From Cristatella mucedo (taxonomy: Eukaryota > Bryozoa > Phylactolaemata > Cristatellidae), in the NCBI GenBank assembly GCA_009760855.2, contig WPIO01000057.1, forward strand, positions 1,455,501-1,519,500: a stretch of 64,000 bases of DNA. The letters run 5' to 3'. Shown in pieces: positions 3,208 through 45,534 of the stretch (position 1 is its first letter; each line of letters starts with the position of its first letter). The position numbers and the translations under genes are program-made. The notes below the pieces were generated by a model. It saw nothing but the letters and a program-made list of their open reading frames with translations, was not told where the DNA came from and did no database searches.

Positions 3208-4263
3208 TGGACTGCTGACAGGTTGTGAGAAGCTTCGCGGGTCAAGAAAGAGCGGTACTGGCTGCACGGGACCTGTTGAATGCTGCTGGAAAGCCTTCCT
3301 TTAGGTCAACTTGAATCGCCTAATAACTACGGAGACCTACTTACCACTAATGTCCGAAGTATTGAAGGGCCACAAATGGGTTCAGATTTACTAAGGGCAG
3401 GCGTACGGTTGTTCCAACGAACCATTAAAATTTTCCATAAGTACGAATACATGATTGGATGCAGTGACATTATTACTCAAAACAAATTTAGAGCAGACGT
3501 CTCTGCAGATTACAAAAACTGAAGGCGTACATGACTCAAGTTTTTCACAGCTCCCGTACTTCTCGTACTGGAAGACCACTTTTGTAGACTTCCTTGATAG
3601 TTCCGTCTGATCGTAACAAGCTGCACAATCGACTTCTAATTGCAAGATTATTGCTATTTATCCGTAGTGCTGGTGGTTGCTTCACCGTGACCGCTACGTA
3701 CGAAGTTAAAAATATTCTGCTTACTTTGGTCGTCATTTTAACTGCAGTAGTGCCCTGGCTTTTGCCGCGGCTAGACGGCTAATTTGCATGAAAGTTTTGT
3801 AATAGGGCAGCTACAGTTTGTTCTAGAAAAGCAGTTAGAATGCCGGTTAATTCACCCTCTACCTTGATATTCAATTATAGTTAGCTAACAAAAGCTCATT
3901 ATATATGCTATTGCATTTGCAATCAGTCTTGCAGGCGCGCGACTGAAGCTCTACGTTCAATAGCCGGCATACTGTAAACGAAGGACGGTTAGGACCGAAG
4001 GAGAGAGTAGTGACCGGGTTGACCTGGAGAAGCTCGATGCAATTTCATGGAAGCCAAGCTGCTGCTGGCTATTCGAAAGAGTCCACCGACGTCACTTTAT
4101 TTTCTTCTCAGCCATATTCTTAAAACGTCAGTGGCAATTTTCTATCGCTGTAAAAAATGGTCTCGTAATAGAATTTACAACTTTCGCGTAATTCTTCACT
4201 TGAAGACGTTTCCAGTTGATGCCTAGCTAAGACCTATACTTACAAAGTTGTTATCAAAGTGGT
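3208..4263. other. unassigned stretch
   Basis: Open frames of 60-84 codons occur on both strands around 3280-3782, but they overlap each other and show no recognisable domain. I see no repeat ends or RNA gene here. Confidence 0.45.
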
Positions 4264-4372
4264 GAGCCGCGATGGCACACTAGGTAAGGCGGTTGCCTTC
4301 ACGACCTCGGTCCCGAGGTTGTGGGTTCGATTCCTGTGGTTGGCGATCCATTATTGCCACAGCAAGCGGTGA
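4264..4372 (+). mobile_element. SINE-A copy (tRNA-derived head), 3' truncated
   Basis: A polymerase III A box (TGGCACACTAG, 4273-4283) and a perfect B box (GGTTCGATTCC, 4324-4334) lie about 40 bases apart, as in a tRNA-derived promoter. The head does not fold as a functional tRNA. The body runs through GGCGATCC and AGCGGTGA, also seen at 16371 and 56700. The element then stops, and LINE-A sequence begins immediately at about 4371, inside the LINE's RT region, so the usual SINE 3' end is missing. Confidence 0.8.
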
Positions 4373-5945
4373 ATGCAGACATGGTAGAATAGTTCTGCTT
4401 GTTTTGCTCGATCTTTCGGCGGCTTTTGATACTATCGAGTCCCAAGTTCTTTTTAAGTGCCTCTCATCTCGCCTGGGCATCATTGCCACTGCACTGCAAT
4501 AGTTCAGGTCCTATGTCAATGGGAGACTCCAGAGTATTGATGTGAATCGACAAAGACCATCCGTGGAACCCCTGAAATCTGGGATACCTCAGGGAACTGG
4601 TCTTGGTCCGGTTCTTTTTACGATTTATCGTCTCATTCTTGCCGATGTGATTATAAAGCATACGCTATGCTTTCAATTCTATGCAGATGACATTCGTTAG
4701 TACCTTCGCTTTGATCCCTCCGAGCAGCACGACAATTTCTCTCAACTCCCTTGCTGCATGTATTGATGACATTCGCACATGGATGGCAGCAAACCTTTAC
4801 AAATTGAATGATGATGAAGCCAACTTACTACTTATGGGAAAACCAAGTATGATTCAGAAATTTGATTGGCTAATGTCCAAAATTGACTCTACCAGCATAT
4901 ATTTTATAGAATCTGAGCATTATCTATGTGTCATGTTCCACAGTGACCTTTTATTAGACGACCACATTAGCTCCACCGTAAAGTCTGCTTACTTTCAGCT
5001 ATATAACATTGCTAAAATTCAGGCTTTTTCAGACAGGGATACCGAATATCAGTTGTTCCTGCGTTTGTGACATCCCGCCGTGACTTCTGTAACTCACTGC
5101 ATTCCGGTCTACCGGCCCGTGCACTCTAGCACTTACAGCTGGTGCAAAAGTCTGAAGCTAGGCTTCGCTGTCATGATCTTTATAGTTGCCACATCACACC
5201 ACTTCTCGCCGACCTTCATCGGCTCTCAGTCAAGCAAAGTATTGACGTCAATTTTTTGTAACTCACTTTTAGGTTCCTTCCTTCTTTGGCTCCAGCCTAT
5301 CTCTCAGATCTACTTCCCCATCAGACCAAGCATCGTACCATCAGCTTTTCGGAGTCTAACTGTTTACGTATACCTCGTGCAAACCTCAAATCTTTTGGAG
5401 ACCGTGCCTTTAGTTCGTATGCTCGCAAAGCCTGGAGGAACTCACTCCCGACTCGTGTCGCGACATCCCCTGACTTGACCACATTTAAAAAGAAACTAAA
5501 AACGCATCAAGTTATCACAGCATTTAATGGGTCCTTATGATTGACCTTTATGTGCTTGTGAGTGCTGACACTGCGCCTGCTGTAGCCAACTATATTTGCA
5601 TGCTGAACGTGTGCAAGCCACCCCTAGCCATGATATTCTTGATGTTTATTGAGCATGCCACCACTAAGAATTCGCACCTGTTTCCTTTGCAAATACTAAC
5701 TGAGGTGACAGCCTCTTTTCTATAGAGACAGAAGAGCCTTTACGGCTGTCACCACAGCTTGCAGTCGTGAGAAACAATAGCCAACCACAGGATTCAAACA
5801 CACGACCTCGGGACCAAGGTCGTGAAACGCAACCAGTCGCCTTACCTTATGAGCCACGTAGCAAATGTAAAGCGAGCCTAGTGAGACAATTACTTCTCCG
5901 AGGGTGCTTTATCAAGTTTGTAATTATTATTATTACCATTAATCC
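4371..5945 (+). mobile_element. LINE-A copy, RT to 3' tail, interrupted by SINE-A
   Basis: This starts at the RT catalytic motif A: the frame 4293-4502 reads LLVLLDLSAAFDTIESQVLF, where the family norm is AFDTIDH. A VPQG-like motif follows with frameshifts. The frame 4681-5070 has NSLAACIDDIRTWMAANLYKLND. C-terminal motifs are split over two frames (5080-5478 and 5286-5540, ending ...TAFNGSL). The 3' UTR is interrupted at 5695-5860 by a SINE-A and resumes at 5861 with the stem-loop and a TTATTATTATTA tail ending near 5945. At motif C the expected YADDTQLY is damaged (ATGCAGATGACATTCGTTAG at 4681). The copy is dead. Confidence 0.88.
5695..5860 (-). mobile_element. SINE-A copy inserted in the LINE-A 3' UTR
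   Basis: This is a full-length minus-strand SINE-A. Its tRNA-like head is at the right side (GGATTCAAACAC and CTCGGGACC in reverse), and its 3' end (reverse of CTCTATAGAAAAGAGGCTG) is at the left. It is flanked by GCAAAT on both sides (5689-5694 and 5861-5866). LINE-A sequence continues across, CCTTTGC before and GCAAATGTAAAG after, so the SINE arrived after the LINE. Confidence 0.82.
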
Positions 5946-6116
5946 TGAGGTAAATTTCTAAGTAAACGTAAAAATCCCTGGGAACGGGCGACGATCGATT
6001 TCTTTCACGCATTTTCAAAAAGAATTAAGATAAATCAATGACTCAGAATGACTTGGTACCTGGAGAGAGATAAGAGTAAAAAAGGAAGCTTCTTGTTGTT
6101 GTGACTACCTACTGAG

Positions 6117-6385
6117 GACAGCATTTAGTGGGTCCCTGTGATTCGTCCTGTATGTGCTTAGGTGTGCTGACACTGTTGCAGGCTGCCACTAACCACATTT
6201 GCATGCTGCCCCTGTGCATGTCACTACTAACCATGTTATTCATGTTGTTTATCAAGGATGATACCACTTACCATTCTATAGCGTTTCCTTTGCAGCAAAT
6301 GTAAAGGTCCTAGAAAGAGATTGAGTTCTCTGAAGGCGCTTTATAAACGTATTATGATTGTTAATAATATTATTATTGATTCCAA
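6117..6385 (+). mobile_element. LINE-A 3' end fragment
   Basis: It begins at the last codons and stop of the LINE-A protein (GACAGCATTTAGTGGGTCC) and runs through the UTR block GTGCTTAGGTGTGCTGACACTG to the stem-loop (GTCCTAGAAAGAGATTGAG...GGCGCTTTATAA) and a TTATTATTGATT tail. It is a short 5'-truncated insertion of about 270 bp. The stem-loop has one lost pair (GGTCC for GCGCC). Confidence 0.85.
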
Positions 6386-10469: not shown

Positions 10470-11265
10470 CACGGAATCGATGCTAAATTAACAAATACTG
10501 CCTATTTTTAGCTTCATAATATAGCTAATATTCGGGCTTGTTTAGATAAAGATACCACATCTAAGTTGGTCCATGAATTCGTGACATCTCATCTCGACTT
10601 CTGCAACTTACTGCTTACTGGCCTACCAGTATGTGCAATCAGGCGGTTGCAGCCAGGCTTGTCTGTCGTGAGCCTCGCAGTTGCCACATTACTCCACTTC
10701 TCGCCGACCTGCACTGGCTACCAGTCAAGCAACGGATTGACTTTAAGGTTTTGTTGCTCACTTTTAGGTCCCTCCATTCTATGGTTCCAGCCTATCTCTC
10801 CGACATACTCCCCCATCAGCCCAAGCATCGTACCACCCGCTTTACGGAATCCAACAGTCTGCAAATACCTCGTACAAACCTTAAATCCTTTGGAGACCGT
10901 GCATTTAGTTCATATGCTCCCAAAGCCTGGAACTCCCTCCCGACCTGCATCAGAACATCCCCTGACCTGACCACATTTAAAAGGAACTTAAAAACACACC
11001 TATTTAGGACAGCATTTAGTGGGTCCTTGTAATTCGTCCTTCATGTGCTTATGCTTGCTGACACTGTGCATGCTGCCACTAACACATCTGCATGCTGACC
11101 CTGTGCATGTCACCCTAACCATGTTATTCGTTTTTTTGTCTTCAAGCATGATTTTACTTACCATTTAATTGCATTTCACTTTGAAGCAAATGAAAGCGCC
11201 TAAAAAGAGATTAAGTTCTCTGAGGGTGCTTTATCAAGTATATTAATATTATTAGTATTATCATA
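10470..11265 (+). mobile_element. LINE-A copy with cleanest C-terminus
   Basis: It begins in the segment before FVTSHLDFCN. The frame 10631-11032 reads without a break through [20 protein letters not shown], then AYLSDILPHQPKHRTTRF, FGDRAFSSYAPKAWNSLPT, and stops after FRTAFSGSL. The 3' UTR and stem-loop (AAAGCGCCTAAAAAGAGATT...GGGTGCTTTATCAAG) lead to a TTATTAGTATTATC tail. A frameshift near 10640 separates the upstream frame 10566-10970. This copy is the best local reference for the family's last 130 residues. With no RT active site it can do nothing itself. Confidence 0.9.
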
Positions 11266-12535
11266 AATATTGAGGGAGCGATTTTCCAAATTTACGGGAA
11301 GTTGAAATAGCTCCTAACTATTTATTTTGCAGTTTTCAGCGTTACGATTACCCACTAATTGGAAATTGCAGTGGGCATGTAATCATTACCTATTACAATT
11401 GACTTAGTCCTAATAGATATTTAATGATAAAATATATTTCGGTTTAAATGCAACCCATACGATCCCGTTGGCTCAGAGCTAGGCCAACAAGACTGGCGCT
11501 AAAATAATGGGATTTAATCGATCTAAAATTTACACCATACTTAAAATGCTAATCAGACTGCCAATAAATACTAATAGTCATAATCAGTCACTTTCATCAA
11601 GGAAAGACCTAATCCTGTTATTCTAGTACAAGTCAGACTTAGCACTAAGGAGAGACCCTCCTAGATCGATATTGCAGTTATTATAGTAAAATTTTGCTGC
11701 CTTCAACTACTGCTCAGAACTATAACGCCGTAATTTCAGATATTTACGCTAGTACATTTAAACGCTTACAATAAGAACATTACTCAGAACGATATTTGAA
11801 CGTAATTAACTTGCCAACTTTGTATTGGCTTAGAATGCCAGTTATCTCATTGATGTCTCATGCACTCTGGCAGCTTAGAGACTTTAAGGTTACTCATTTC
11901 GCATACAGGTGCATTCCTTATCTTGCTCGTATCCTTCAACTAAAAAGGAACAATATTCAGGCGACCGGTCATAGCCATCCACCAGGTCGGTCATAACACG
12001 GAACGCTCCAGTAGTTGAGGTTGGTTGGTTGTGCCCTAATGAGCTCTAATCTATTGAACTCGGTCCATCCAGTTCCGAGGCATGCAAATCCCTGAACGGT
12101 CAATAACGGCAGTAGTGATTCCTATTAATTGACAGTGCAATAGAAACTTTGTTGTTCGTCCTGCTTCCATTTATTAGTTTAGAATTCTCTCACTTTAAAA
12201 AACAGTTGCTGAACCTGTATATCGCAATGTTCCTCTATAATAGACTATGAATTGACAAATAAATTTCAGTTACGAACTTTAAATTTGGCCGCTGAATGAA
12301 ACATGAAATTGTGGGATTAGCAGATACTTATGGGCAGTGCTATTAGTAATAGAATATGCTTCTTTTAACTGTTTAAGATATTTGACTGATCTGAGTCACG
12401 ACTTTATCTTTTTGTACTTTGTAGGTATTGTGCCGCTACCTAAACTACTGAGGGCCGAGCAGTTGGAAAATAATGTTATGCTTAACGACAAAAAATCAAA
12501 TAATTTCAGGCGAGATCCACAAACCATTCGGGCTT
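11266..12535. other. unassigned stretch
   Basis: AT-rich DNA with no recognisable gene. Frames at 11796-11996 and 12337-12567 are short and without motifs; the second runs into a LINE-A tail. Confidence 0.45.
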
Positions 12536-17075: not shown

Positions 17076-18414
17076 TTCAGCCTGCGTTTGCTTGCGGTTG
17101 CTGGCGATGTGCCGTGAAACCAGAGTTGCTACAGCTAAGATGCTTCCGGTGCCTTAGTTGGATGTGTTTGACATGACGGTGAGCTCACACGGTACTCGGT
17201 TCTTACTAGGAATAGTGGCCAAGCAGATGAATTTAACAACTGAAAATGAAAACTGTGCTGCCAATGAAAGGTTTTACCTCAGCCTGGATCATTAGCTTTC
17301 CTCTCAATTGTTGTAGTATAAATTTCACGCCTACTTTTGCGAATTCTAGATGCTAATATAAGTTCCGATGCCAGCTGAAGTAGTCTCATAAACTGCTAAA
17401 AACTCTAGTTTGATTTTTGCTGAGAACATTTATTGTTTATTCTGGCTTTTCATCTTAAGCGTATCGTCTAGAAAGCTTATATATTTTCCTAAACTGCTCA
17501 AATAATTCGTTTGGCTTTACTATCCTAAGATATAACAAGGAGAACTTTTCAGAAAACCCAACTACTTTGTTTAGACCTCTAAGACAAAGTAATCTCTATC
17601 TGGGTGATCGAGACCAGGACCTCTGCGATCTAATTCTTTCATTTTGATTTCGGTCATCAAGGGCGAACACTTTTATCCTTGAGCAGGAACAGGGTGCCCT
17701 TTCGACTTGCTTAGCACGAATAATTTCACATGAAAATCCCTTCAGCTATGTGCCAGCAGATGCTTTATTTGCAATTGCTAAGGCACTCTTAGCAGGGAAC
17801 TAAGTCTTAAGTCATTAAACTGAAACCCTTAGCTAACGGCACCTCAAATCACATGCAGTGAATTCAATAAATCAAGTTACAACGGCAAAGTCCGAAGAGG
17901 AAATTGCAAGTTAGAGGGAACACATGTTGATCTGAACATCGAGCATATTTACAATGCATTGATTTAGGTGAGACATACTTGCTATCATCCTGCTTGCAGT
18001 GCGAAATGAAAGTTCGCCTGCTGCACGATTCGTACTGATCTGAGGGCTCCTAGAGTTCCTAATTGAAGGGACTGTCATTGGCCGAGGAGCGGCAGGCCTT
18101 AAGAAATGGCTCTCATAATAAGCACGGCCACATGGCTTACTAAAACAAAGGGACCCTAATCGCAGCAGTTTGAGCTACTGAAGCGTCGATAGCTACCCCG
18201 ATCGCACACTTGTGCCTCTTTTGGGGTCACACTACACCTTTAACTAATGCTGATCTTGGAAAGCCGAGCGTTTTATAAAACCTAGATCTTAAAATTATTC
18301 CTTTATTTAGGAAAAATAATCGAAGGTCTTGGCTCACCAAGGAAATAGGCTCGTCGTGCAAAAAAAGGACTGATTGACTTCTAATCTTTCGATTGTTTGT
18401 CCATTAGATAGCCG
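17076..18414. other. unassigned stretch
   Basis: No gene or repeat ends recognised. Base composition falls back to AT-rich after about 17220. Confidence 0.45.
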
Positions 18415-20098
18415 ATATCAGGGAGTCCATCCCCGGGATGACCTTTATAATGCATCCCTTGATTCCTTGCAGCACCATAATTTCAACATTCGAACAGGTC
18501 AGTAGTGATCACATCCCCAAGCTCATATCCCAATCAATGAAGACAACTAGTCCTCTTGACCCTATTCCCACTGTCCTCTGCCTATTTTGCATTGTTCTGC
18601 TGCTGCCGTGCATAATAAACATCATTAATATGTCATTACCATCACGACATGTCCCGGCACCTTAAAAAAAGCTGGATTCAGGAAACTTCTCAAGAAAGTG
18701 ACACTAGACCAAGAGAACTTGAACAACTACCTCCTGATCTCCCTTCTATAATTCATATAAAAGACACTGTAACGAGTCGTAGCCAACTAGCTGAACACAT
18801 ATATTACAAATTCAAACCTTGCTATTAAGTTTCAGTCTGGCTTTAGAGATAATCACCGTACAGTCTCAGCATTGCTTCGGGTACACAACGACCTACATAG
18901 CAATGCAGACAAGGGTAGAATATCTCTGTTTGGTTTGCTCGATTTTTCGGAAGTTTTTGATACCATCAATCACTAAGCTTTTCTTGAGCACCTCTCATCT
19001 CGCCTGGCATCACTGGCACTGTTCTGAAATGGTTCAGATTATATCTCAGTGCGAGATTCCAGAATATTGATGCGAATGGCAAACATAATCCGAGGTACCT
19101 CTAAAAATGGGGTACCCCAGGGCTCACCCAGCCTTCGAGCACCTACAATTCTCTTAACTTTCTTGCAGCATGTATTGATGACATACAGACACTTAAGACA
19201 GCAAATTTCCCTTAATTATATAGCTATATCACCACATTCCTATTTATGGGCAAACCCAGTGTAATTCAGAAATTGGAAAGGCTGATGCTCAAAATTGGCT
19301 TTGCCAGCATATCTCCTGTTGAATCAGCTCGAAATCTAGGTTTCATGTTCCAAAATGACCTTTAGTTAGACGACCACATCAGCTTAACAATCAAGTCTGT
19401 CTACTTTCGGCTACGTAAAAATTCTAAAACTCAGGCTTGTTTACATAAGGATACCACATATAAGATGGACCGTGCATTTGTGGCATCGTGAATTGACTTC
19501 TGTAACTCACTTCCTGCTGGACTGCAGGCATGTGCAATCATCTAGTGGAAAACTCTGCAGCTAGGTTTGTCTGTCGTGAGCCTTGCAGTTGCCACATCTC
19601 ACCACTTCTCGCCGACCTGCACTGGCTACAAGGCAAGCAACGGATCGATTTCAAAGTTTCGTCGTTCGCTTTTCGGACTCTTAGTTTTTGGCTCCAGCCT
19701 ACCTACCAGATTTACTCCCCCAGTAGACCAAGCATCGTACTACCCGCCTATCGGAATTTATCTGTTTACTCCTACCACGTAAAAACCTCAATTCCTTTGG
19801 GAACTGTGTGTTGGCTCCCAAAGTTCGTGTGCTTCCAAAACCTGGAACTGACTTCCGAATTGGGTCATGACATTCCTCACTCGACCACATTTAAAAATAA
19901 ATAAAAAATACTCATGTTTATGACAGCATCTAGTGGGTCCTGTGATTCTGGTGCATGTCACACCTAACCATTCCATTAATGTTTTGTATCAAGCATGATA
20001 CAATTCAAAATTCGATCGTGTTTCATTTGTGCCAATGTAAAGTGCCTAGAAAAAATTAGATTCTCTGAGGTTTTTATATAACGCGTTTGATTATTATC
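18415..20098 (+). mobile_element. LINE-A copy, long but with internal deletion
   Basis: It starts upstream of the RT domain, at sequence matching CATCCCAGCGATGAAAAC of the copy at 42775. SQSMKTTSPLDPIPTVL (frame 18438-18665) is the linker before the RT, followed by a broken RT motif 1. Motif A is in a damaged frame near 18930 (CTCGATTTTTCGGAAGTTTT). At about 19122 the sequence jumps from GGGGTACCCCAGGGCTC (the VPQGS codons) straight to the CCAGCCTTCGAGCACC segment, removing the YADD motif. The C-terminal parts are in two shifted frames (19530-19904 and 19567-19782). The stem-loop and tail end near 20098. Confidence 0.87.
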
Positions 20099-20646
20099 AG
20101 TATAGTTATTACGTATCTATCTCCGTAGGAAACTAGCTAATCTTTTCGCTTGCTACTCGCCAGCAAGGAAGATAATCATAATAATAATAATGCACTCAAT
20201 AAAGCTCCCTCAGACAACTCAATACTTTATTGGCGCTTTACATTTTCTGCAAAGAGAAACGCCATAGAATCGTGAGTAATATCAGGCTTTTTAAACAACA
20301 TGAATAAAATGGCTAGGGTGACATGCACTGGGTCAGCATGCAAATGTGTTAGTGGCAGCATGCACTGTGTCAGGACGCATAAGCACACGAAGGAAGAATT
20401 ACAGGGACCTACTAAATGCTTTCCTAAATTGGTGTGGTTTTAAGTTCTTTTTAAATGTGGTCAGGTCAGGGGATGTTCTGACGCAGGTCTGGAGGGAGTT
20501 CCAGGCTTTGGGAGCATACGAACTAAATGCAGGGTCTCCAAAGGATTTGAGGTTTGTACGAGGTATTAGTAAACTGTTGGATTCCAAAAAGCGGGTGTTA
20601 CGATGCTTGGCCTGGTTGGGGACTAGATCTGAGAGATAGGCGGGAG

Positions 20647-20719
20647 TATAAAAGCAAAGTTAAACTTTGATGCGGGAATACTTTCAAAGGCTAATAGCGT
20701 GGGTGCAACATGTAATGAC
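20647..20719 (+). repeat. 73-bp dispersed unit, copy 1
   Basis: These 73 bases, from TATAAAAGCAAAGTTAAACT to GCAACATGTAATGAC, recur in inverted orientation at 30472-30544 with only about three differences. The unit is flanked by ATAGGCGGGAG on the left (20636-20646) and the same 11 bases after the adjoining inverted arm (20744-20754), as a target duplication would be. Its origin is unknown; it has no coding capacity. Confidence 0.85.
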
Positions 20720-20785
20720 CTCAATTTTAGGTCACTTCATTCTATAGGCGGGAGCCGCCATAGAATGAAGTGATCTAAAATTGAG
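20720..20785. repeat. long inverted repeat (26-bp arms plus GC stem)
   Basis: Arms 20720-20745 and 20760-20785 are reverse complements with one mismatch (C/T). Inside them GGCGG (20747-20751) pairs with CCGCC (20755-20759) around the loop GAG, with one unpaired A. The right arm is ordinary LINE-A antisense sequence (compare ATAGAATGAAGGGACC at 27000); the left arm is an inverted copy of it. Confidence 0.9.
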
Positions 20786-20885
20786 CGACCAAACATTGAA
20801 GTCGATTCGTTGCTTGACTGGGAGCCAGTGCAGGTCGGCAAGAAGTGGTGCAATTTGGCATCTGGGACGCTCACGACAGATGAGA

Positions 20886-23814: not shown

Positions 23815-23822
23815 GCATACTG

Positions 23823-24010
23823 CAGTGGTTCTCAACCTTTCTAGTGCCACGACACTTTAATAGTTCCTTGTGTTGTGACGACCCCCAGCCAAAAAAAAAA
23901 TATTGTTTGTGAAATGTGGCAATCCGTGTTGTCCGATAGTGTTAAACGTCCTCATTGAAAAGACCATTCGACCCTCAAATGGGTCGCGACCCACAGGTTG
24001 AGAATCACTG
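23823..24010 (+). mobile_element. hAT-type MITE with SPIN-like ends
   Basis: A 188-bp element bounded by inverted ends CAGTGGTTCTCAACCT (left) and AGGTTGAGAATCACTG (right), one mismatch, with a perfect 8-bp target duplication GCATACTG (23815-23822 and 24011-24018). Internal end sequence, GTGCCACGACACTTTAATAG, then GTTGTGACGACCCCCAGCC on the left and TTCGACCCTCAAATGGGTCG, then CGACCCACAGG on the right, closely follows the SPIN (hAT) non-autonomous consensus as I remember it. The centre is short and unrelated to the longer SPIN relics I know. It has no coding capacity and would need a hAT transposase in trans. Confidence 0.9.
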
Positions 24011-24285
24011 GCATACTGGCACATACATCGGCAGCACCACCATAGAATGCACAAGGCCATAGAAACCACTGGGCCATAGATGGCTGAAGAGCAATAACAA
24101 GTTTATTAAAAAGTGGCAAACTAGGCATGACGTGTACAGCTAGGCCATAATTGCAAATGTCCCGTCATTTAAGTATCAAAGCAAAAATCTGTCCTATTCC
24201 CCTGATGTCTAGATCTGAAAAGGCTTCAAAGACCCTGAGCGGGTTGGCCAATCAACTACCTGATACTCGGTTTACATTAAGAATA

Positions 24286-25916
24286 CAGTCGTCCCTTACT
24301 ACTTTGAGCTTCAACTTTCGCGGCTTTACTCTGTCGTGGTTTAGTGAAACACGTGTATATTCATTACAAAGTTGATCGAAATAGTAAAAATGATACAGCA
24401 AGTGATCGTTTGTCTGAGTCAATTATGCACTCCTGTATTACAATTAAAATGAAAATTAATATGCACATGGAAAGCGGAAGAAGACGACGAAACACCTGTT
24501 GAAGGTAAACCAGTATGCAAAGAGTTTAAATGTCTTGTATTTTTATTACACTGAGAGACGACCTGTTACAGCATCACCTGAAGACTCTCCTACTGAAGTC
24601 GGGCCTTCAGAAGAACAGAAGCCGTGCTTTTCTTCACTGTGCTGTACATCTCTTCATCTTGTAACCGCTCAGGTGGCTCGTACCCCAGTTTTCTACCGAT
24701 GAACTGTGTGATGCAGTGCTGCAGAGCGGTTAAAACACAAGCGGCCACAAATGGGCGCCGAAAGCGACAGTTTGTTGTGGGCCGGTTAGTAGTGGTTAGG
24801 GGCCGGCGCTAGCCCTTTACACGGTGCCAACCTGACCGAGGAGTTAACTGCTTGAACTCCCGAAGCTGGTGTAAAAGGAACTATCCTATGCTGGTGTCGC
24901 TAGCGATGCAATCCCGAAGGTGGGCCGCTACAGCACCCCAAGATATGCTCAGCTAACTGAGTATCCGGCAGAACACAACAGCACAGTCTAAGTGGCACTT
25001 AGCTGTTCTTGGCCGTAGGTTCGACTATCGTGCTCTCGAAGCGTTGTCTCGTATCGACTACCAAGCTGCAGCTCCGAGCTCTGCCAGTCGTCCCATCATA
25101 TTCTCTCTCCTCTAAATTCCTGACCTCGCTAAGAGCTGCTATTTCTGCTGCAGAACATTAGTCGGTGCACATCCTGACCACACAGTCTGCACCAGGCTTC
25201 ATTCCAACTTTAGCGGATGGATCAGGAGTTGGGTCTGTACTAGGTGTTCTAGTCGACCCCACGAAGGCAAAGGCTCCCATCGTGGCTCAGCTGAGAGCTG
25301 CCCAAGTGCATACTTAATCGCATCATCATTAAACGCACTATTTTCATAGCTTGTTGTTTTCGCATAACGATTGTCTGCGTGTGCAATTAAATGAACAATA
25401 ATAGCAATAAGATATTTGAAGCGTCCAGTATGCCTTGTTTTCTCCTATTTTGTCTAATATATTTGGTAATACAAGTGTATTGGTGACTACAGGGGTGTTA
25501 TTTCATGTCAGTAGGGCTCTAATAATCCATGTGACTCGTCCTTCACGTGCTTATGCATGCTGACACTGTGCATGCTGCCACTAACCACATTTGAATGCTG
25601 ACCCTGTGCATGTCACCCCTAACCATATCATTCATATTGTTTGTTTTTCAAGCATGATTTTACTTACCATTCAATTGGATTTCCCGTTACAGCAAATATA
25701 AAGCGCCTTGAACGAGATTAAGTCCTCTGAGGACGCTTTATCAAGTGCATTATTACTATTATTAATATTAAAACCCTATTTAGAGGGTCATAAACAGGTT
25801 TTCTATGCTCTAACTATGAAAGTATTAGATTTATAAATAAAGAATCCTACTTAGCGGAAATTCACCTTTCGCGGTAGAGTCTGGAACGGATTGACCACGA
25901 TAAGCGAGGGTAAATC
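24286..25916 (+). mobile_element. Tigger/pogo-like transposon relic, interrupted
   Basis: After a TA dinucleotide (24284-24285) the left end reads CAGTCGTCCCTTACTACTTT, then GAGCTTCAACTTTCGCGGC, typical of Tigger/pogo-type Tc1/mariner elements. The right side near 25855-25910 has ACTTAGCGGAAATTCACCTT, then TCGCGG and CACGATAAGCGAGGG, the mirror-type end, after which the terminus is lost. The frame 24499-24702 (RRPVTASPEDSPTEVGPSEE) may be what is left of an acidic transposase C-terminus; no DDE core is present. A GC-rich block at about 24820-25315 looks foreign, and a LINE-A tail sits at 25512-25775. Confidence 0.7.
25512..25775 (+). mobile_element. LINE-A 3' fragment inside the Tigger-like relic
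   Basis: It begins at CCATGTGACTCGTCCTTCAC, just after the protein stop, runs through the UTR and stem-loop (AAAGCGCCTTGAACGAGATT...GGACGCTTTATCAAG) and ends ATTATTACTATTATTAATATT. The flanking DNA reads GGGCTCTAATAAT before and AAAACCCTATTTAGAGGGTC after. The uninterrupted version of the junction, GGGCTCTAATAATGTTAAAA, survives at about 26158-26177 and proves the insertion. Confidence 0.9.
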
Positions 25917-28875: not shown

Positions 28876-31235
28876 AAATTAAATAATCAGGAATGGTAAA
28901 ATATTCAAAATTCAGAATGAATATAGTCAGATGAGCTCAAGTCGACCATTGGAACTTCACATAGCTAGGTATTTCTACTCATGGCTGAGATATTGAAACT
29001 CCAAGGAGACTTCATTGCCACGATTATGCTTTTTTAAAGCCTACGTAAACTAAATTTAAAAAGATTCTGTTTTATGAGGGTGCTATACAAAAATATTGTT
29101 CATTTTCTAATGATTATGTTATTATAACGACCTAAGCAGGTCATTTCATTTTAATTTCTTTAGAATGCTGGGGGTCGTCTTACTAAAATCATTCATCCCG
29201 GATGCGTTTGAAATCCTCCATAGTTCGACAAACATTTAAAAAAGACTGGGTTAGATTCTGCGGTTACTGCAACCGTCATATCGTCTCTATTCTTTGTATT
29301 TATCCCAGATTCTGGAAGTGATTAACGTTGTTGTGGAATGCTTTTTCCATACTCGTCAATCATGAAAGTTGTAGCTGAGTTTCTGAAGGCACCAGTCGAC
29401 TAAAACTGTAGCTTTTTCAAGGGCCTAGGAAAATCTGAGCATTAGCAGTGTTAAAAAATATCTGCTGCTGTTCTTTTAAACTTAACAGCATACTTTTTTC
29501 TGTTAATCGCAGTCTTTTTTAAACAATTAGAAAAAATTTCATTCTTGTAGATGAACCACTAGTGCGGACGGAATATGCAGTCTCGTGACCTGTTGCAGTC
29601 AAGATGAGTTGTGCTCCAGGCTTCTTGCAGTACTAGTTGTGCTGTAATGTCAGTGCTTGCTGCGGGGCCTCTAACGGTAGGTAGTCTTGACAAGGACACC
29701 CCTATCGTATTCATTGGTACTCTTAACCTAAGGCATAGGCGTTCTACATTGCTGCCGAGTCTCGCGCTACAACCCGTATACATGAGTGCATTAGCATCAA
29801 CGTACAACCGTGATTCCAAAGCACAAGGCTACTCCAGAATTTGGTGCATGTCAGTAGCGTGTTGACTAGCACCCCTGTGAGTGTCTTCTTGCTGCCGAAT
29901 TGGGTGCGGAATCGGTAGTCGCTAAACTCTTTCGTAAAACTACTCCTCTATTCCTTGAGGATTGTAAATTCGTCTCATTTTAGTAGTCAAAGACATTTCC
30001 ATCATTAGCAGTCCTGATCGCGAAGCTTTGAAGTCCACTGCAGTCCCATGTCCTTTTATTTGATTCTCTAGTAATTACCGCTTATTTCAGTAAAAAAATT
30101 TGACTTATTGCTCCGCCATATTGCTTAACGGCTTTGATCTTTCCGTGCTCTACCGTGTACGCTAGAACCAGAGCCCAGCTAGGAGGAGGTGCTATCACTT
30201 CCAAGATTTATGCGCCAGTAGTGGCAGCGAACTTTGGCGGAGTTATTGTGTCGCGAAATTTAGCTTCCTCGGTAGGGTAACGAGAATATGCTACGGTTTT
30301 GCAATTGTGCTGGAAGCGGGCAAAGAAATAGCAATGTTCATTAATGGCAGCCGGCGCCGGTCTATAGCACTGATATTGCGAAAATTGCCAAGAAAAAGAA
30401 GACTTATCGATTAACGCTTTACCAAATGGTTAAGTTCGCTCGAGCCATCTGTCTAAAGTTCTTATACACGGGTCATTACATGTTGCACCCACGCTATTGG
30501 CCTTTGAAGGTATTCCCGCATCAAAGTTTAACTTGGCTTTTATAATGAATACTTTGCAAAAAAATTATACAACTCGTGTAATTATTATTTTTTCTATATA
30601 AAAAAGAATACTAAAATGTGAGAAACCCTCGCGCGTAAGTGCGTTAACCTTAAGTTGCTTAGATTATGAAAATTCTAGGTAAACGTTAGTAGAGCACTAT
30701 AATGGAAATACGGCGTCAATTTACAGCAACTAATTTTATGACCCATGCGACGTAGCAGGGATCGACCGTTCGCCGTAACTCAATTGCACTGATTATTCCA
30801 AGAATTTTAGGCCCATGAAGCTCCGGGCGCAGTGCTTGCAGCTAAGAATTCTATTTATGTACTTGTATGCGATATTGTCGGTTCTAACAGTCAAAGTTTG
30901 ATAAATAAGCTTCAAAATGAGTTCAAGTTCGCCTCTAGAAGCAGAAATAAAAGTGTACTGAGCGATGCCTGCTTGTGATTAAGTAGGTTTGAAGCTGATG
31001 GAAATGCTAACCGTTTATTCAGCCGGTATGCTGCTCAATGTCTGTCGTACTGACTTCGGTTAGGCTTGAGCGCCATCTGATGTGCTCCGATCGTCGGTTG
31101 CAGGCTTAGTAAAGGAACCATAAGCTATAGTTTCACCTACTAGCTTTCTCTCAACGCGGTTTAGCTGCTTAGATTATTTAGCAGTGTTTCATATTTGCTA
31201 TATAAAAATATTAGTAATATTAATTAAAATAAATT
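28876..31235. other. unassigned stretch
   Basis: It holds a very weak LINE-tail-like segment near 29066 (AAAAGATTCTGTTTTATGAG, then GGTGCTATA) and the 73-bp inverted unit at 30472. Frames at 29559-29865 on both strands overlap each other and have no recognised domain. No other feature seen. Confidence 0.45.
30472..30544 (-). repeat. 73-bp dispersed unit, copy 2 (inverted)
   Basis: This is the reverse complement of 20647-20719, starting GTCATTACATGTTGCACCCA and ending CTTGGCTTTTATA. Sequence outside the 73 bases is unrelated to that beside copy 1, so the unit itself has defined ends. No inverted ends, tail or target duplication was noticed here. Confidence 0.85.
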
Positions 31236-34083: not shown

Positions 34084-36750
34084 ATTGTAATGTAATGTAT
34101 CTCCGTCTGTAACTCCACTAAGTCATAAAGACTATGTGGGTGTTACGTAGGAGAGTGTTGTATAGCACACTCAGCCTGAGCGGTTTTCGGTACGCATTCG
34201 GTAGCAAACAGACTACGTCTCACTCAACAAAGAGAAAGTGAGAAGCATAGCAGAGTCAAGAGAGCAGTTGAGGTAGTGAGTAACGTAGAAGAAGCAGCAC
34301 AGGACCGCTGAAAAGGATGTGCCATAGTCGGCAGTAGGAGAGTAGTTGTCGTAGCGTAAGAATTGTGGAAGCGAGTTCCACACTCTTGGACCTGCAGAGC
34401 TAAAGCTTCTGTCGCCAACGGTCTTTAAGCAAAGGAATGGGACAGCTAATTTATGATCCACAGAGGACCTGAGAGGGCGAACAGGCTGAAATCTGTGCAG
34501 CAGCTCAGCTAGGTACGAAGGAGCCAAGCCGTGGCTGGCCTTGTGGGTCAGTATAGAAACTTAGCTCTGTATCCTTTGTTCAACCGGATACCATCCTAGC
34601 TCTTTCAGCAAAGGAGACACGTGCTCAAACCGCTGGGACTTGAAGGGTAGCCTTGAAGCCATATTCATAGTCCCCTGCAGTGGTCTAATTGCTTTCTTTG
34701 GCAGCCCAACCAAAAGTGAATTACAATAATCAAGCCCAGACAAAAATAAGGAGCTAGTTAAATTTTTTACAAGCCACTGTAGGAGACAGCTCCTATTCTT
34801 GGATAGGAATCGGATATGATGGCTAGCTGTAGAAGCAGTCTTCTGAATGAAGGTTTTGAAATTGAGGCAGCTGTCGAACTCAACAGCAAAGCATTTTAAT
34901 CCAGCCACACGCTTAGGGTGTCCTATGAGCAGCAGTTCGGTTTTATCACCATTTAATTTCAGGAAGTTTTTCGACATCCAGAATCGAATATCGGCAAAGC
35001 AGGCATCGAGTTTCTCAGTTGCCGCAGGAGATTTCGACGGTTTGAATGACAAATACAGCTGAGTATCGTCAGCATAGAAGGGATATCCTATTCCATAAGC
35101 CTTAATCACTTTTCCCAGAGGTTGTGTATAAATGGAGAGCAGCAAGGGACCGAGTACAGACCCTTGAGGGACTCCACAGATGATCTTTCTCGTGTCTGAG
35201 ACCTGATTAAAATATTTCTGACTTTTAATTCTTATCAATATGTTCAACCAGCTGCTTAGCAGCAATTTTTTCAAGAATCTTTGACAAGAAAGGAAGATGG
35301 GAAACTGGACGATAGTGTGCAAGTACCTCTGTGTCTATTCCAGGCTTTTTGCGAATGGATCTAACGATTGCCAATTTGAAGGATTTGGGGACGACCCCTT
35401 TTCTCACAGAAGCATTAAAAATCTTGGTTATGGCAGGGCTAACTTGATCTACCAGTTAAGACCACAGCGATAAAGTTACAGGGTCTTCAGGAGACGAGCT
35501 CTCTTTTCTAGACCTTATTAAGGTAACCACATCGCATGCAGAAACCTCAAACAATATTTTAAGGAAGATCACAGGTTGTGGAACCGCGATTTCTTTAGTC
35601 GGAGGGGGCTTAATGGAGGGGCAAATATGCATAATGCTTTCAGTAAATAAGGCTGAAGATCTTTTGGCCGATCCCTTAATATCTGGGGAGTCTGACCTCT
35701 CAGCATTGGCCAATAAAAGGTATACTGCTTTTTAAATCAGTTTGGGGTCCGACTAGCAAGAATTCAGCTTTCGGATGAAAAAAGAAGCCGTGGCTTTTAT
35801 AAGCTTTCGGGTGTAAACTTGAAGGAAGTCTTTGAAATTGACTCGATCCGAATCAGACCCGATTTTATGAAACAACGTTCAAGTTTTAGCCTAACGTGGT
35901 GCATCTTTAGGAGTTTTTTTGTGAATTGAAAGGAATCTCAGCGACTTTGAAAACGAATAGAATGAACGGGAGCCTGCTTGTCAAGAGTACTCCTGAGTGT
36001 CATGCTTATTGCATCAGTGAGGGTATCGATGCTGTCGGTCAAGTGTGAATGCAGATCAAGAAGACCTGCATCTCAAACACATTTCAAAAACTTGTCTATG
36101 TCAATAGTTTGTAAGTTACGTCGTTTGACAAGTTCGATATTACCCTGTACATACAAGAGAGCACAAACAATATACGAGACCGAACAATCGTCTAGAGGGT
36201 CAGTGGGCACACCACAAGGTCAGTGGGTAGGACATCCTGAGTGATCACGAGATCTAGAATACGACCACCGCAGTTGGTAGTATGATTAACGTGTTCAACA
36301 AAACCAAAATTCTCTAGACAGTCAAGAAATTAGGGGAACTGGCCGTTCCTAGGTTGTCAACGTGAATATTGAAGTATCCTACAATCAGTAACAGCCTGTC
36401 ATACACACATATTTTAGCGAGGAACTCTGAAAACTCCTCTATAAACAAGTTACAAGTTTAGACAGCCAGAAAGAGGCCGGTATATCACAAAAGTGTGAAC
36501 CTTTGTCTTTGATCAAGACCTGATTGCAACCGATTTAAACGATGGCCCATGAGAAAAACTGCACATCGTATAGCCAAAAAATTCGCGAACAACAATTGCA
36601 ACCCCCCACAACCTTGCCGGAACTCATAGACTGATGGAATGAGAACCCGGGTGGAGGGGTCTCAGAATTACAGCTACTGGAAGGAGGCGTCATCCAAGTT
36701 TCAGTAAGCAGAAATGCATTTAGCTTTTTGTGGAACACCTGATCGCGATA
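34084..36750 (-). mobile_element. longest LINE-B copy, endonuclease to tail
   Basis: From the 5' side (right) the endonuclease shows LNAFLLTETWM (frame 36535-36738) and a GYFNIHVDN block near 36360-36390, where the family norm is GDFN. A linker frame follows (35456-35713). RT motif 1 is FKLAIVRSIRKK...HYRPVSHLPFLSKILEK (35225-35407). The 253-codon frame 34561-35322 has VPQGSVLGPL (residues 51-60), intact FYADDTQLY (82-90) and KNFLKLNGDKTELLLIG. The C-terminus is in frame 34213-34527. The DNA between motif 1 and VPQG, which holds motif A, is deleted near 35215-35235, with a frame change. The copy is inactive. Confidence 0.92.
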
Positions 36751-40742: not shown

Positions 40743-41602
40743 AGCTTGATGCTGTAGCAGCATTTGTTACTATTGAGTACCAAGTCCTTTTTAGGGCCTC
40801 TCATCTCGCCTGGGCATCACAACCACAGCAAAAAAATGAATCAGATCATAAGTTTGTGAGATAATTCAGAGCATTAACTGTGAATGACAACGGATTATCA
40901 GAGAAACCTCTGAAATTTGGGGTACTTCAAGGCTCTGAGCTTGGTCCCATTCTTCACTCGGCTTATGTACTTCCCCCTGCCGATGTGGTTTCCAGTCACA
41001 ATCCAGGCTTTCACTTCCATGCAGGAGGAGGCTTACATAGAAGTCATGGCTAGGATTTGGGATTTTTTAAATAGGGGCAGCACATCTAAATTATTCATTG
41101 TATTCATAACATCACATGTTGACGTCTGTATGCCACTGCTTGCTGGTTTACTTAAATGTGGATTCACGGGGTAACAGCCTGTGCAAAAATCAACTGATAG
41201 GCTTCTCTGTCGAAAGCCCAACAGATGCCGCGTCAAAGTAAGTCTTTCCGACCTGCAATGGCTCGTAGTCGAACAATGCACAGACTCCCAGGTGTTTTCA
41301 CTTACTTTAGATCTCTGCATTTCTTGGGTCCAGTCTACCTATCAGATCCTCTCCCCTACCAGGCTAAACATCATACTGTTTGTTTTTTGACATCTAATCG
41401 TTTACCTATACCTTTTAGGAATTAAAATCCTTTGGAAAACATGCCTATAGTTCGTGTGGTCCCAAAGACCGTTACTCGCTACAGACCTGTGTCACAACTT
41501 CCCCTGACTAGACCACTCTACGAAAGAAACTGAAAATGCATCTATTAAGTACCTAAATTAGTTGATTCACGTGATTCGTCATTTGCGTGCTTACTTGTGC
41601 TA
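40743..41602 (+). mobile_element. LINE-A copy, RT pieces to 3' UTR, strongly worn
   Basis: It opens in the segment after motif A (ATTGAGTACCAAGTCCTTTT, then CTCATCTCGCCTGGGCATCA). VPQG is degraded to GGGGTACTTCAAGGCTCTGA, and the YADD region to CATGCAGGAGGAGGCT. A jump then leads to ACATCACATGTTGACGTCTG and the C-terminal blocks. It breaks off in the UTR at about 41602 (GTGCTTACTTGTGCTA), where the tail of the next, opposite copy begins. Confidence 0.82.
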
Positions 41603-42745
41603 ATAACAATAACAATAATACATTAGATATAGTGCTATCACGAAACTCAATCTCTTTCTAGGCACAGCACATTCGCTTAAAAGAAAGCACGGTCGAATGG
41701 TTAGTCGTAGCATGCTGAATAAACAAGAAGAATAACAAGGTTAGGGTTGACATTTGCAGCCTCTCCATGGAAGTATGGTCAGTGGCAGCATGCACAATGT
41801 CAGTTCGCTTTAGCCCATAAAGAAAAATGCACAAGAACCCAATAAATGCCGCGATAAATAGATGCATTTTTAATTTCCTTTTAAATGTGGTCAGGTCAGG
41901 AAATGCTGTGTCGCATTTCTGGTGTGAGTTCCGGGCTTTGGGAGAAAATGAACTAAATGCAGGGTCTAAAAATGACTTGATATTTGTAAAAGGTATAGGT
42001 AAAAATGAGATTCAGAAATACAGGAAGTATGCTGCTCAGCCTGGTAGGGAGTCGATCTGATAAGTACTCTGGGTATGAAGAACAAAGGGACCTATGAGTG
42101 AGGGGCAGAACCTTGAAGTCAATGCAAGGCTTGACTGGAAGCCAGAGCAGGTCGGCGAGAAGTGGTGAGATGTGGCAACTGCGATGCTCAAGACTGACAA
42201 GCCTAGCTGCAGAAATGCCTGATCGTTCTGGCCGGTAGATCAGGACACAGTGAGTTGCAGAATTCAACACTGGATGCCACAGATGCATAGATGAATTTAG
42301 GTGTAGTATCCCTCTCTAAACAAGCCACAATTATAGCAATTTTACGTAGCAGAAAGTGGATAGGCTTGACTGTGGAGGTGATGGGGTCGTCTAATCAAAG
42401 GTCGCTTTGAAACTTGACACCAAGATTTCGCGCAGATTCCATATAGAATACATGCTTGCAGAACCATGTTTGAAATTTAACGTTATTAATTTTCGAATCG
42501 GGCTAGGTTTACCTATAAATGATAAGCTGGTTTCACGATCATTAAATTTTAGAAAGTTTGCTGCCATCCATATTACGGCGTGATCTATACACGCAGAGAG
42601 AATTCGAAGTGCTAGAAGGCTGGGAGGCATCGAAACAAAGGTTTTCCTGACTGTCATCTGGACAGTTGTTAAAGCCTAGGTTTAGCCTGGAAATTACGAG
42701 GGAAAGAAGAAGACTATAATCTTTGAAAAGAACTGAACCTAGTGG
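41603..42745 (-). mobile_element. LINE-A copy, tail to RT motif C region
   Basis: Tail ATAACAATAACAATAATACA, worn stem-loop, UTR, then the C-terminal domain (AAATGTGGTCAGGTCAGGAA; frame 41953-42288 has SCHISPLLADLLWLPVKPCI), then frame 42391-42657 with CIDHAVIWMAANFLKFND. It extends to about 42745, where AGTATAAACC-like sequence marks the segment after VPQG. It meets the plus-strand copy at 41602 tail to UTR. Confidence 0.85.
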
Positions 42746-42774
42746 TCCTTACATCGTGCTAAATGCCTCTAACT

Positions 42775-44915
42775 ATATTTGAATGCTGACCCCATGGATG
42801 TCTACTGTAGGTCATACCAATCGATCATAGCAGAGGCCAAATCTAGCTTCTATAAAAACATTGTTGAATCACAGATGCACAATCCAAAAATGCTGATGTC
42901 GACGATAAGCCATCTCCTCAACAGCTCACAGGTTAGCTCCTTACCTGATGATCCTTGTGATGATCTAGCCGATCACTTCTCTAGAATCTTTGTGCAAAAG
43001 ATAGACAAGATCAGGGAATACATCCCAGCGATGAAAACATCTCCACTGGAATGTTGTTCCCCGATTCCTGGCTGCACCTAACTGTCTAAATTTAAGCAGG
43101 TCACTAGTGATCTAGTCCTGAAGCTCGTATCTCAATCAAGGAAGACAAAAAGTCCTCTGGACCTTATTCCCACTGTCCTGCTCATACGTTGCATTGATCT
43201 GCTGCTGCCATACATAACTAACATCCTTAATATGTCATTAGCCTCAGGTCAAATCCCAGCACCTTTAAAAAAGCTGTAGTCAGGCCACTTCTCAAGAAAT
43301 CAACACTCGACAAAGAGAACTTAAGCAACTACCGCCAGTCTCCCTTCTATTATTCCTCTCAAAGACACTGGAACGGGTCGTAGCGGACCAGCTAAACTCA
43401 CATTATTGAAACCTCACACCTTGCTAGTAAGTTCCAGTGTGGCTTTAGAGGTAATCACTCCACAGAGTCAGCATTGCTTAGGGTATGCAACGACCTACTT
43501 AGGAATGCAGACATGGGTAGAGTGTCTCTGCTTGTTTTGCTCGATCTTTCGGCAGATTTGGATACCGTCGATCACAAAGTTCTTCTAGAGCTCCTCTCAT
43601 CTCGCCTGGGCATCACTGGCACTGCTCCCCAGTAGTTCAGGTCCTATCTCAGTGGGAGACTCCAGAGTATTGACGTGAATGGACAAAGATCATCTGAGGT
43701 ACCTCCGAAATATAAGGTACCTCAAGCTCCGTGCTAGGTCTTGTTTTTTTCACGGTTTACGGTTTACACTCTCCATCTTGCTGATGTGATTGCCAAGCGC
43801 AATCTAGGCTTTCACTTCTGAGCGGTTGACACTCAGTTGTACCTTTGCTTTGATCCCTCCCAGCCTTCGAACACCTCGAATTCTTTCAACTCACTTGTTG
43901 CTTGTAGTGATGACATCCGCACATGGATGGCAGTAGATTTTCTAAAACTAAATGTCGATAAAACTAACTTACTAGTTATGATCAAACCCAGTGTCATTCA
44001 CAAATCGGAAAGGCTGAAGCTCAACATTGGCTCTGCCAGCATATCTCCAGTTGAGTCAGCTCGAAATATAGGTGTCATATTCCAAAGCGACCTCTCGTTA
44101 GACGACCGAATCAGCTCCAGAGTCAAATCTGCCTATTTTCAGCTCCATAACATTGCTAAAATTCCCGCTTGCTTAGATAAGGATACCACGTCCACGTTGG
44201 TCCATGCATTCGTGACATTCCGTCTCGACTTCTGCAACTCACTGCTCACTGGCCTACTGGCATGTGCGATCAGGCGATTGCAGCTGGTGCAAAACTCTGC
44301 AGCTAGGCTTGTCTGTCGTGAGCGTCGCAGTTGCCACATTACTCCACTTCTCGCCGACCTGCACTGGCTACAAGTCAAGCAACGGATTGACTTCAAGGTT
44401 TTGTCGCTCACTTTTAGGTCTCTTCATTCTATGGCTCCAGCCTATCTTTCAGAGATACTACCCCATCAGGCAAAGCATCATACCACTCGCTTTTCGGAAT
44501 CCAACAGTCTAGAAATACCTCGTACAAACCTTAAATCCTTTGGAGACCGTGCATGTAGCTCGTATGCTCCCACAGCCTGGAACTCCCTCCCGACCTGCAT
44601 CAGAACATCCCCTGACCTGACCACATTTAAAAGGAACTTAAAAACATACCTATTTAGGACAGCATTTAGTGGGTCCTTGTGATTCGTCCTCGATGTGCTT
44701 ATGCGTGCTGACACTGTGCATGCTGCCACTAACACATCTGCATGCTGACCCAGTGCATGTAACCCCTAACCATGTTATTCATTTTGTTTGTTTTTCAAGC
44801 ATGATTTTACTTACTATTCTATTGCGTATCACTTTGCAGCAAATGTAAAGCGCCTCGAAAAAGATTGAGTTCTCTGAGGGCACTTTATCAAGTGCAATAT
44901 TATTATTATTATTAT
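42775..44915 (+). mobile_element. longest plus-strand LINE-A copy
   Basis: The 5' frame 42779-43081 holds the linker YCRSYQSIIAEAKSSFYKNI, SQMHNPKMLMSTISHLLNSS and LADHFSRIFVQKIDKI. RT motif 1 (AAAAAAGCTGTAGTCAGGCC) is frameshifted at 43262. Motif A reads LLDLSADLDTVDH (frame around 43540). Motif C is destroyed: the YADD codons at 43816-43832 now contain TGA. The last 281 codons (43837-44682) are open, from LCFDPSQPSNTSNSFNSL to an FRTAFSGSL end. UTR, stem-loop (44847-44890) and an ATTATTATTATTATCATC tail complete it. Confidence 0.92.
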
Positions 44916-45534
44916 CATCATTATTATCAAGCAGGCCGCTTACGGTGGATGGATGCACTGGGAAGTCCACATGGCATTTACCAGCGGAGGTAAGTATGTT
45001 CTGTCAGTTTTAGATGCTCTGAAGTTCCAAATACTCCGAAGTTAGACTGAGTCATCGCCGGTGTACACATATAATCTAATACTGGTATACCGGTATTAGA
45101 GCAAGCTTATTCGTGGCTATGATATCAATAAGTAGCTGACAAACACTTTATATTTCTTGAGAGTCACGTGCAGTTTCGAGGACGGTGAACATTGAAGATA
45201 TCCTTTATTCAGAGAAAAGAAACGGGCATGCCGTTCATGCAATAACGACTGCGAATTAACAGGTTACGTTTGATGCCTTCAAGTAGCTGACCTTTCTGCC
45301 TGAAAATGCAATAGGAGGCGCATTTTTAGATTTCATATAACCAAGCGTTGGGCTCAGGTAGGAGCATCCTAATAAAACCTGCTGATGCAGGATATTTTAT
45401 TTCTTTTTATGCTAAGAAGGATGGCAGATTAAGGTCTGTGCTATTGTAATATGCAATTCATGCTACTTAAAAAAATTTCTGTCGCATTAGGAGGTCTCAC
45501 TTGTCATCGCATTACGGATGGGAACAGTTTTACT
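44916..45534. other. unassigned stretch
   Basis: A short inverted repeat ATACCGGTAT lies near 45090, with the related TACTGGTATA beside it. Otherwise no feature seen. Confidence 0.42.

What the first reader, a model, noticed from the sequence alone, without database searches (positions are those of the whole stretch)
23823..24010. SPIN-like hAT MITE: possible trace of horizontal transfer
The sequence shows exact element bounds, 16-bp inverted ends with one mismatch and a perfect 8-bp target duplication. SPIN elements are known for horizontal spread among tetrapods, a triatomine bug, a pond snail and a flatworm. The similarity extends beyond the inverted ends into the first 60 or so bases, including GACGACCCCCAGCC and GGGTCGCGACCCACAGG. 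If the host is an invertebrate, this adds a lineage or strengthens a known one. The short centre looks like a distinct deletion derivative.
Basis: partly seen in the sequence, partly recalled or inferred. Interest (0 to 1): 0.72.

Follow-up and report, generated by a model that had tools for sequence, protein, structure and literature searches.

The report
SPIN-like jumping-gene fossil in invertebrate DNA
A 188-base, gene-less jumping element of the hAT/Buster type, resembling the SPIN elements known from tetrapods and some invertebrates, sits in what looks like invertebrate DNA; it is a real but fairly ordinary find, and whether it arrived by transfer between species could not be tested here.

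Summary
In detail: 23823-24010 (188 bp), 15/16 inverted ends, exact 8-bp duplication GCATACTG; 0 of 1,580 shuffled windows gave such a combination. [quoted passage not shown] Similarity to SPIN goes past the ends: against a SPIN consensus recalled from memory, 56/64 on the left and 69/88 on the right; the centre shows none. As a check on recall, a published rat primer matches element bases 5-29 at 22/22 with a 3-base gap; two other rodent primers match at the expected places, but only just above shuffles, and one does not match. CpG observed/expected of 0.75 suggests an invertebrate host, not identified. A second hAT with a broken transposase lies at 56965-59671 and is probably not the parent. 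Horizontal transfer was not tested: all 18 host-genome searches did not complete and no second copy lies in the window. Divergence of 12-22% does not by itself suggest a recent transfer. SPIN-like elements in invertebrates are in print. Verdict: new member of a known kind.

The parts
23815..23822 (.). left target-site duplication GCATACTG (NNNTANNN form)
   Evidence: exact direct repeat with 24011-24018; Buster form from passages of PMC3517528 and PMC3499496
23823..24010 (+). 188-bp non-autonomous hAT element (MITE), SPIN-type
   Evidence: No frame of 120 or more residues overlaps it; three stop-to-stop frames of 81-93 residues run across it and its flanks and were not searched
23823..23838 (+). 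left terminal inverted repeat CAGTGGTTCTCAACCT
   Evidence: 15/16 complementary to the right arm
23839..23886 (+). left subterminal block (element 17-64), 40/48 identical to the recalled SPIN_NA consensus, gap columns left out; rat primers match at element 5-29 and 47-67
23887..23922 (+). centre (element 65-100) with a run of ten A at 23891-23900
   Evidence: bounds approximate; the stretch tested, element 71-110, scores no better than shuffles against the recalled consensus (275 of 1000 reach the score)
23923..23994 (+). right subterminal block (element 101-172), 55/72 identical to the recalled SPIN_NA consensus, with the 14-bp palindrome TGGGTCGCGACCCA at 23980-23993
23995..24010 (+). right terminal inverted repeat AGGTTGAGAATCACTG
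24011..24018 (.). right target-site duplication GCATACTG

Best explanation
The sequence is one decayed copy of a miniature, gene-less hAT transposon of the Buster family, closest among the things compared to the SPIN/URR1-type MITEs (the name URR1 is recalled). Shown here: exact ends, inverted repeats, an 8-bp duplication of NNNTANNN form, and similarity to SPIN-type sequence in both subterminal blocks. Inferred: a Buster/SPIN-type transposase made elsewhere in the genome bound the inverted ends and the subterminal sequence, cut the element out and pasted it into a TA-centred 8-bp target, which was duplicated on repair. The element derives from a longer parent by internal deletion, keeping the ends needed for mobility. 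The copy has since gathered point changes and is probably immobile. The host is most likely an invertebrate animal. Whether the family came by descent or by transfer is undecided.
For: Ends, TIRs and TSD; none in 1,580 shuffles. TSD GCATACTG has TA at its centre, as in the Buster family, which includes SPIN (passages of PMC3517528, PMC3499496). The interior alone (element 17-172) scores 105 against the recalled consensus, shuffle maximum 37 in 1,000; the 5' block (17-70) and 3' block (111-172) each exceed all 1,000 shuffles. Differences are 7 transitions and 1 transversion in 64 sites on the left, 12 and 7 in 88 on the right. Published rat Avpr1b primer 7-R matches element 5-29 at 22/22 with one 3-base gap (score 38, maximum 23 in 40 shuffles); rat 8-F 16/21 at 47-67 (22 against 20) and mouse Kcnq1ot1 R 15/20 at 110-128 (18 against 16), both on the minus strand and in the expected place. 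The two ends match the recalled SPIN ends at 14-16 of 16, the four Buster1/Buster2 ends compared at 11-12 of 15-16, and Mar at 6-7 of 11. Host CpG o/e 0.75.
Against: Five published primers agree with it at 18/20, 18/20, 20/22, 18/21 and 19/20, but three of them were found by searching for strings of the element or of that consensus, so part of their agreement is by construction; only Ate1 R2 and Avpr1b 8-F were neighbours not searched for. Of six recalled strings searched, two were found in print. Two primers match the element only just above the maximum of 40 shuffles, and mouse Ate1 R2 does not match it above shuffles at its expected place (score 8, shuffle maximum 14; 10/20 ungapped). One copy only. 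PMC4298943 reports that the Buster elements it compared resemble each other over about 106 bp of their ends, so a sister Buster family is possible.
Confidence: 0.78

Rival explanations
1. A MITE of a sister Buster family, native to the host lineage and inherited vertically, whose ends resemble SPIN because Buster ends are conserved.
For: PMC4298943: similarity among Buster elements extends about 106 bp into the ends. Divergence from the recalled SPIN consensus is 12-22%, against identity of up to about 98.1% quoted for Rhodnius and mammal copies in PMC11614815. A second Buster-type hAT lies in the same window.
Against: The ends match the recalled SPIN ends (14-16 of 16) better than the Buster1/Buster2 ends compared (11-12 of 15-16); order and content of the inner blocks follow the recalled SPIN and the rat primers.
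Confidence: 0.3
2. A horizontal arrival of SPIN in this host lineage, as reported for Rhodnius. (Not exclusive of the best explanation: it adds the route of arrival.)
For: A SPIN-like hAT is published for Biomphalaria (about 1,000 copies) and SPIN for Rhodnius. The host of this window looks like an invertebrate (CpG o/e 0.75).
Against: One copy, 12-22% from the recalled consensus. No copy count, divergence profile or host identity: the genome search was unanswered in all 18 tries.
Confidence: 0.25
3. The autonomous partner is the hAT element at 56965-59671 in the same window, and the MITE is its deletion derivative.
For: Same Buster-type TSD form (GCCTAGCT) and a transposase relic.
Against: Comparing the outer 100 bases of the MITE with the outer 200 of that element, the best local matches are 9-21 bases long: two lie in the first 31 bases of the ends, two are short inner matches of 9 and 10 bases; no shuffle control was run.
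Confidence: 0.03
4. Chance arrangement of repeats.
For: Exact 8-bp repeats with weakly matching ends are common: the 10-of-16 scan gives 12 hits in the window and about 3.5 per shuffle.
Against: 0 of 1,580 shuffles reach 14/16 ends plus an 8-bp duplication; interior similarity to SPIN-type sequence.
Confidence: 0.01

Closest known systems
SPIN_NA (SPACE INVADERS) MITEs; rodent repeats of the same type (URR1, name recalled)
   Same: Ends at 14-16 of 16 against the recalled consensus, same order of subterminal blocks, 8-bp TA-centred duplication; rat primer 7-R matches past the end.
   Different: 188 bp against 223 bp recalled; centre unrelated; 12-22% different in the aligned blocks. One copy seen.
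SPIN-like hAT of the snail Biomphalaria glabrata (PMC5440852)
   Same: A SPIN-like hAT in an invertebrate, reported at about 1,000 copies (passage only).
Buster1 and Buster2 (PMC4298943)
   Same: Buster family; short non-autonomous copies; Buster1 has TGGGTCGCG repeats near its ends, and TGGGTCGCG occurs here at 23980-23988.
   Different: The four of their ends that I compared match here at 11-12 of 15-16 bases.
The second hAT in this window, 56965-59671
   Same: Buster-type TSD form and hAT ends.
   Different: 2.7 kb with a transposase relic; subterminal sequence without long similarity.

Membership tests
hAT superfamily | 8-bp target-site duplication | tested here: met
   GCATACTG on both sides, exact
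hAT superfamily | short terminal inverted repeats (5-27 bp) and length under 4 kb, per PMC3517528 | tested here: met
   16 bp, one mismatch; 188 bp (definition)
hAT superfamily | mobilised by a hAT transposase | not testable with these tools
   non-autonomous element; the host genome could not be searched
Buster family | TSD consensus NNNTANNN | tested here: met
   GCA-TA-CTG; a single insertion, and a central TA is expected by chance at roughly 1 in 15 (own estimate from the base and TA frequencies)
Buster family | transposase placed in the Buster clade | not testable with these tools
   no parent element known
SPIN | SPIN terminal sequence | tested here: met
   left end 15 and 16 of 16, right end 14 and 15 of 16, against the two recalled SPIN ends; recalled, not a database sequence
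SPIN | subterminal similarity beyond the TIR | tested here: met
   recalled consensus: 40/48 left, 55/72 right; published rat primer 7-R strong, two further primers just above shuffles, one not
SPIN | very high identity to SPIN of distant hosts, the sign of transfer | tested here: inconclusive
   one copy only, 78-88% to a recalled consensus; no family consensus for the host
MITE | short, non-coding, TIRs and TSD | tested here: met
   no frame of 120 or more residues overlaps it
MITE | many similar copies in the genome | not tested
   no other in the window; the genome search unanswered in 18 tries

The most novel reading that the evidence does not exclude
SPIN entered an invertebrate lineage not yet recorded as a host, and this copy belongs to a distinct deletion derivative that multiplied there, so that its copies could date the transfer. 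(The host being unidentified, no literature search could test the word new.)
Probability: 0.25. Interest if true: 0.5.

Novelty: new member of a known kind. Interest (0 to 1): 0.27.

Why it matters
SPIN is a well-known case of DNA passing between distantly related animals. Each further host, once identified and dated, narrows the possible carriers. This copy gives a usable probe: its ends, its centre and a TA-centred target duplication. Alone it shows only that a SPIN-type element once moved in this lineage.

Tried and rejected
Chance: rejected. The in-window hAT at 56965-59671 as parent: disfavoured on subterminal sequence. Other copies in the window: besides the element itself, its own palindrome and its own ends, only matches of 11-22 bases at E 0.39 or more; the 13-base match at 29167-29179 showed no further similarity by eye (sequence printed). 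Public collections: an exact 24-mer found 0 in IMG/VR and 0 in GTDB genomes; an 18-mer gave one IMG/VR locus, L001; a 20-mer gave one GTDB locus, L002, and one IMG/VR locus, L003. The match is 19 or 20 bases in each and I take all three as chance. A degenerate 25-mer gave 0 in IMG/VR. blastn against phages and plasmids: no match. These are microbial and viral collections, so the negatives say little about animals. No Rfam match at gathering level and no tRNA in the window. Host identification failed: among 86 frames of 75 or more residues outside the window's repeats, read by eye, I recognised no host gene. Pfam was run on 10 ORFs and 10 (two the same): above cut-off were RVT_1 (two ORFs), Exo_endo_phos and Dimer_Tnp_hAT; DUF4371 and a few others were below it. 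NCBIfam on 4 ORFs: one group II RT match at 28 bits against a cut-off of 300. PDB: one match at E 0.84. The single-strand fold z-score of -2.14 is what inverted ends would give and was not used.

Primer check, what was dropped: one search reported 30 papers holding short strings of the element, 29 listed; I opened three (PMC2767504, PMC11247941, PMC4676835). One search found 3 papers holding 2 of 6 recalled strings; I opened one (PMC6221546). The rest were not looked at. A mouse sequence in PMC11247941 with a partial likeness was not scored. That these primers lie in SPIN-type repeats is my inference.

Papers: passages only for PMC5440852, PMC11614815, PMC3517528, PMC8721813, PMC3499496, PMC2767504, PMC11247941, PMC3606216, PMC3621081, PMC11008031, PMC5791352, PMC6221546, PMC4676835 and PMC4054807 (the last calls its 385 turtle SPIN elements hAT-Charlie, unlike the Buster placement in PMC3499496); passages and part 1 of section 5 for PMC4298943. 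Two primary SPIN papers (PMC2579371, PMC3350315) are not held. SPIN in Lymnaea and a flatworm is from the finding and recall, not from a call.

Full report
What is there. At 23823-24010 lies a 188-bp element with ends CAGTGGTTCTCAACCT and AGGTTGAGAATCACTG, complementary at 15 of 16 positions, flanked by GCATACTG on both sides. Among first-order Markov shuffles of the window, 0 of 60 and 0 of 1,580 contained an exact 8-bp repeat around 16-nt ends with 14 or more matches, for inner lengths of 60-1500 bp.

What it is. An 8-bp duplication and short inverted ends are hAT features (PMC3517528 passages). The duplication is GCA-TA-CTG, the NNNTANNN form given for the Buster family in PMC3517528 and for TcBuster in PMC3499496; the latter lists SPIN in that family. 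One insertion cannot establish a preference: by my own estimate a central TA is expected by chance about once in fifteen. No frame of 120 or more residues overlaps the element; three stop-to-stop frames of 81-93 residues run across it and its flanks and were not searched.

Is it SPIN. No Dfam or Repbase sequence is available here, so I used a SPIN_NA consensus recalled from memory (223 bases). In reverse complement, the left 64 bases agree at 56 and the right 88 at 69, gap columns left out. Element bases 71-110 show nothing above shuffles (275 of 1,000 reach the score). The interior without the 16-bp ends scores 105, against a maximum of 37 in 1,000 shuffles.

Check on the recall. Because recall after reading the element could be circular, I looked for printed sequence. 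Searches for short strings of the element (30 papers, 3 opened) and of the recalled consensus (3 papers, 1 opened, 2 of 6 strings found) led to five rodent primers in papers not about transposons. They agree with the recalled consensus at 18/20, 18/20, 20/22, 18/21 and 19/20. For three of them part of that agreement is by construction, since they were found by those strings; mouse Ate1 R2 and rat Avpr1b 8-F were neighbours not searched for. Against the element, with 40 shuffles per primer: rat Avpr1b 7-R matches bases 5-29 at 22/22 with a 3-base gap, 13 bases beyond the inverted end (score 38, shuffle maximum 23); mouse Ate1 R1 matches the right end at 18/20 (30 against 19); rat 8-F 16/21 at bases 47-67 (22 against 20) and mouse Kcnq1ot1 R 15/20 at bases 110-128 (18 against 16) lie in the expected place and orientation but only just above shuffles; mouse Ate1 R2 does not match (8 at its expected place, 13 as best elsewhere, maximum 14; 10/20 ungapped). 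Similarity to SPIN-type sequence is therefore not confined to the ends. A caution: PMC4298943 reports that the Buster elements it compared share about 106 bp of their ends, so a sister family remains possible.

How it works (inferred). A Buster/SPIN-type transposase from elsewhere would have bound the ends and the subterminal sequence (here including the palindrome TGGGTCGCGACCCA, 23980-23993), excised the element and inserted it at a TA-centred site. Six of nine CpG sites of the recalled consensus remain and three have become TG or CA; differences are 7 transitions to 1 transversion on the left and 12 to 7 on the right. This looks like a decayed copy.

Host. CpG observed/expected is 0.75 for the window, 0.63-0.86 in 8-kb pieces. 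Vertebrate genomes are usually near 0.2-0.3 (recalled), so an invertebrate animal is likely. Reverse transcriptase and endonuclease pieces and many diverged repeat pairs fit an animal genome. I could not name the host.

Horizontal transfer. Not tested. All 18 attempts to search the host genome did not complete, no other copy lies in the window, and the collections searched are microbial and viral. SPIN-like elements in invertebrates are in print: a hAT of about 1,000 copies with significant identity to SPIN in Biomphalaria glabrata (PMC5440852 passage), and SPIN, OC1, hAT1 and ET elements in Rhodnius sharing up to about 98.1% identity with those of opossums, squirrel monkeys and bats (PMC11614815 passage). 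The copy here is 12-22% from the recalled consensus, which by itself suggests an old copy or a related lineage rather than a recent arrival.

Surroundings. At 56965-59671 there is a second hAT element with ends CAGGGGTGTCCAAC and CAGAGGTGTCCAAC (13/14) and an exact duplication GCCTAGCT, again TA-centred. It carries a transposase relic with a hAT dimerisation domain above cut-off and DUF4371 below it, interrupted by one in-frame stop at 58265-58267 and a change of frame near 57.65-57.71 kb. Its left end resembles Buster2 of a bat (CAGGGGTGGCCAACCT). In the outer 100 bases of the MITE against the outer 200 of this element, the best matches are 9-21 bases long, so it is probably not the parent.

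Verdict. A real SPIN-type Buster MITE in probable invertebrate DNA: a new member of a known kind. The proposed transfer story is open.

Noticed in passing
window 56957-59679: A second, nearly full-length hAT element of Buster type (56965-59671) with an exact 8-bp duplication GCCTAGCT, ends like Buster2, and a transposase relic broken by one stop and a change of frame.
   Followed up: partly
window 2462-6377, 10492-11275, 18385-20880, 41045-47900 and others: About 21.8 kb of the window lies in repeats similar to other parts of the window; the pairs listed (first 120 only) are 65-96% alike. Reverse transcriptase (34561-35334, 46485-47579) and endonuclease (48282-48755) pieces look L2-like by recall.
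   Followed up: partly
window 24286-24360: A stretch (CAGTCGTCCCTTACTACTTTGAGC...TTTCGCGGC...) that by eye and recall resembles the end of a pogo/Tigger-type element, about 275 bp right of the MITE (sequence).
   Followed up: no
window 24040-24089: Three near-copies of a 17-base unit beginning CCATAGA just downstream of the MITE.
   Followed up: no
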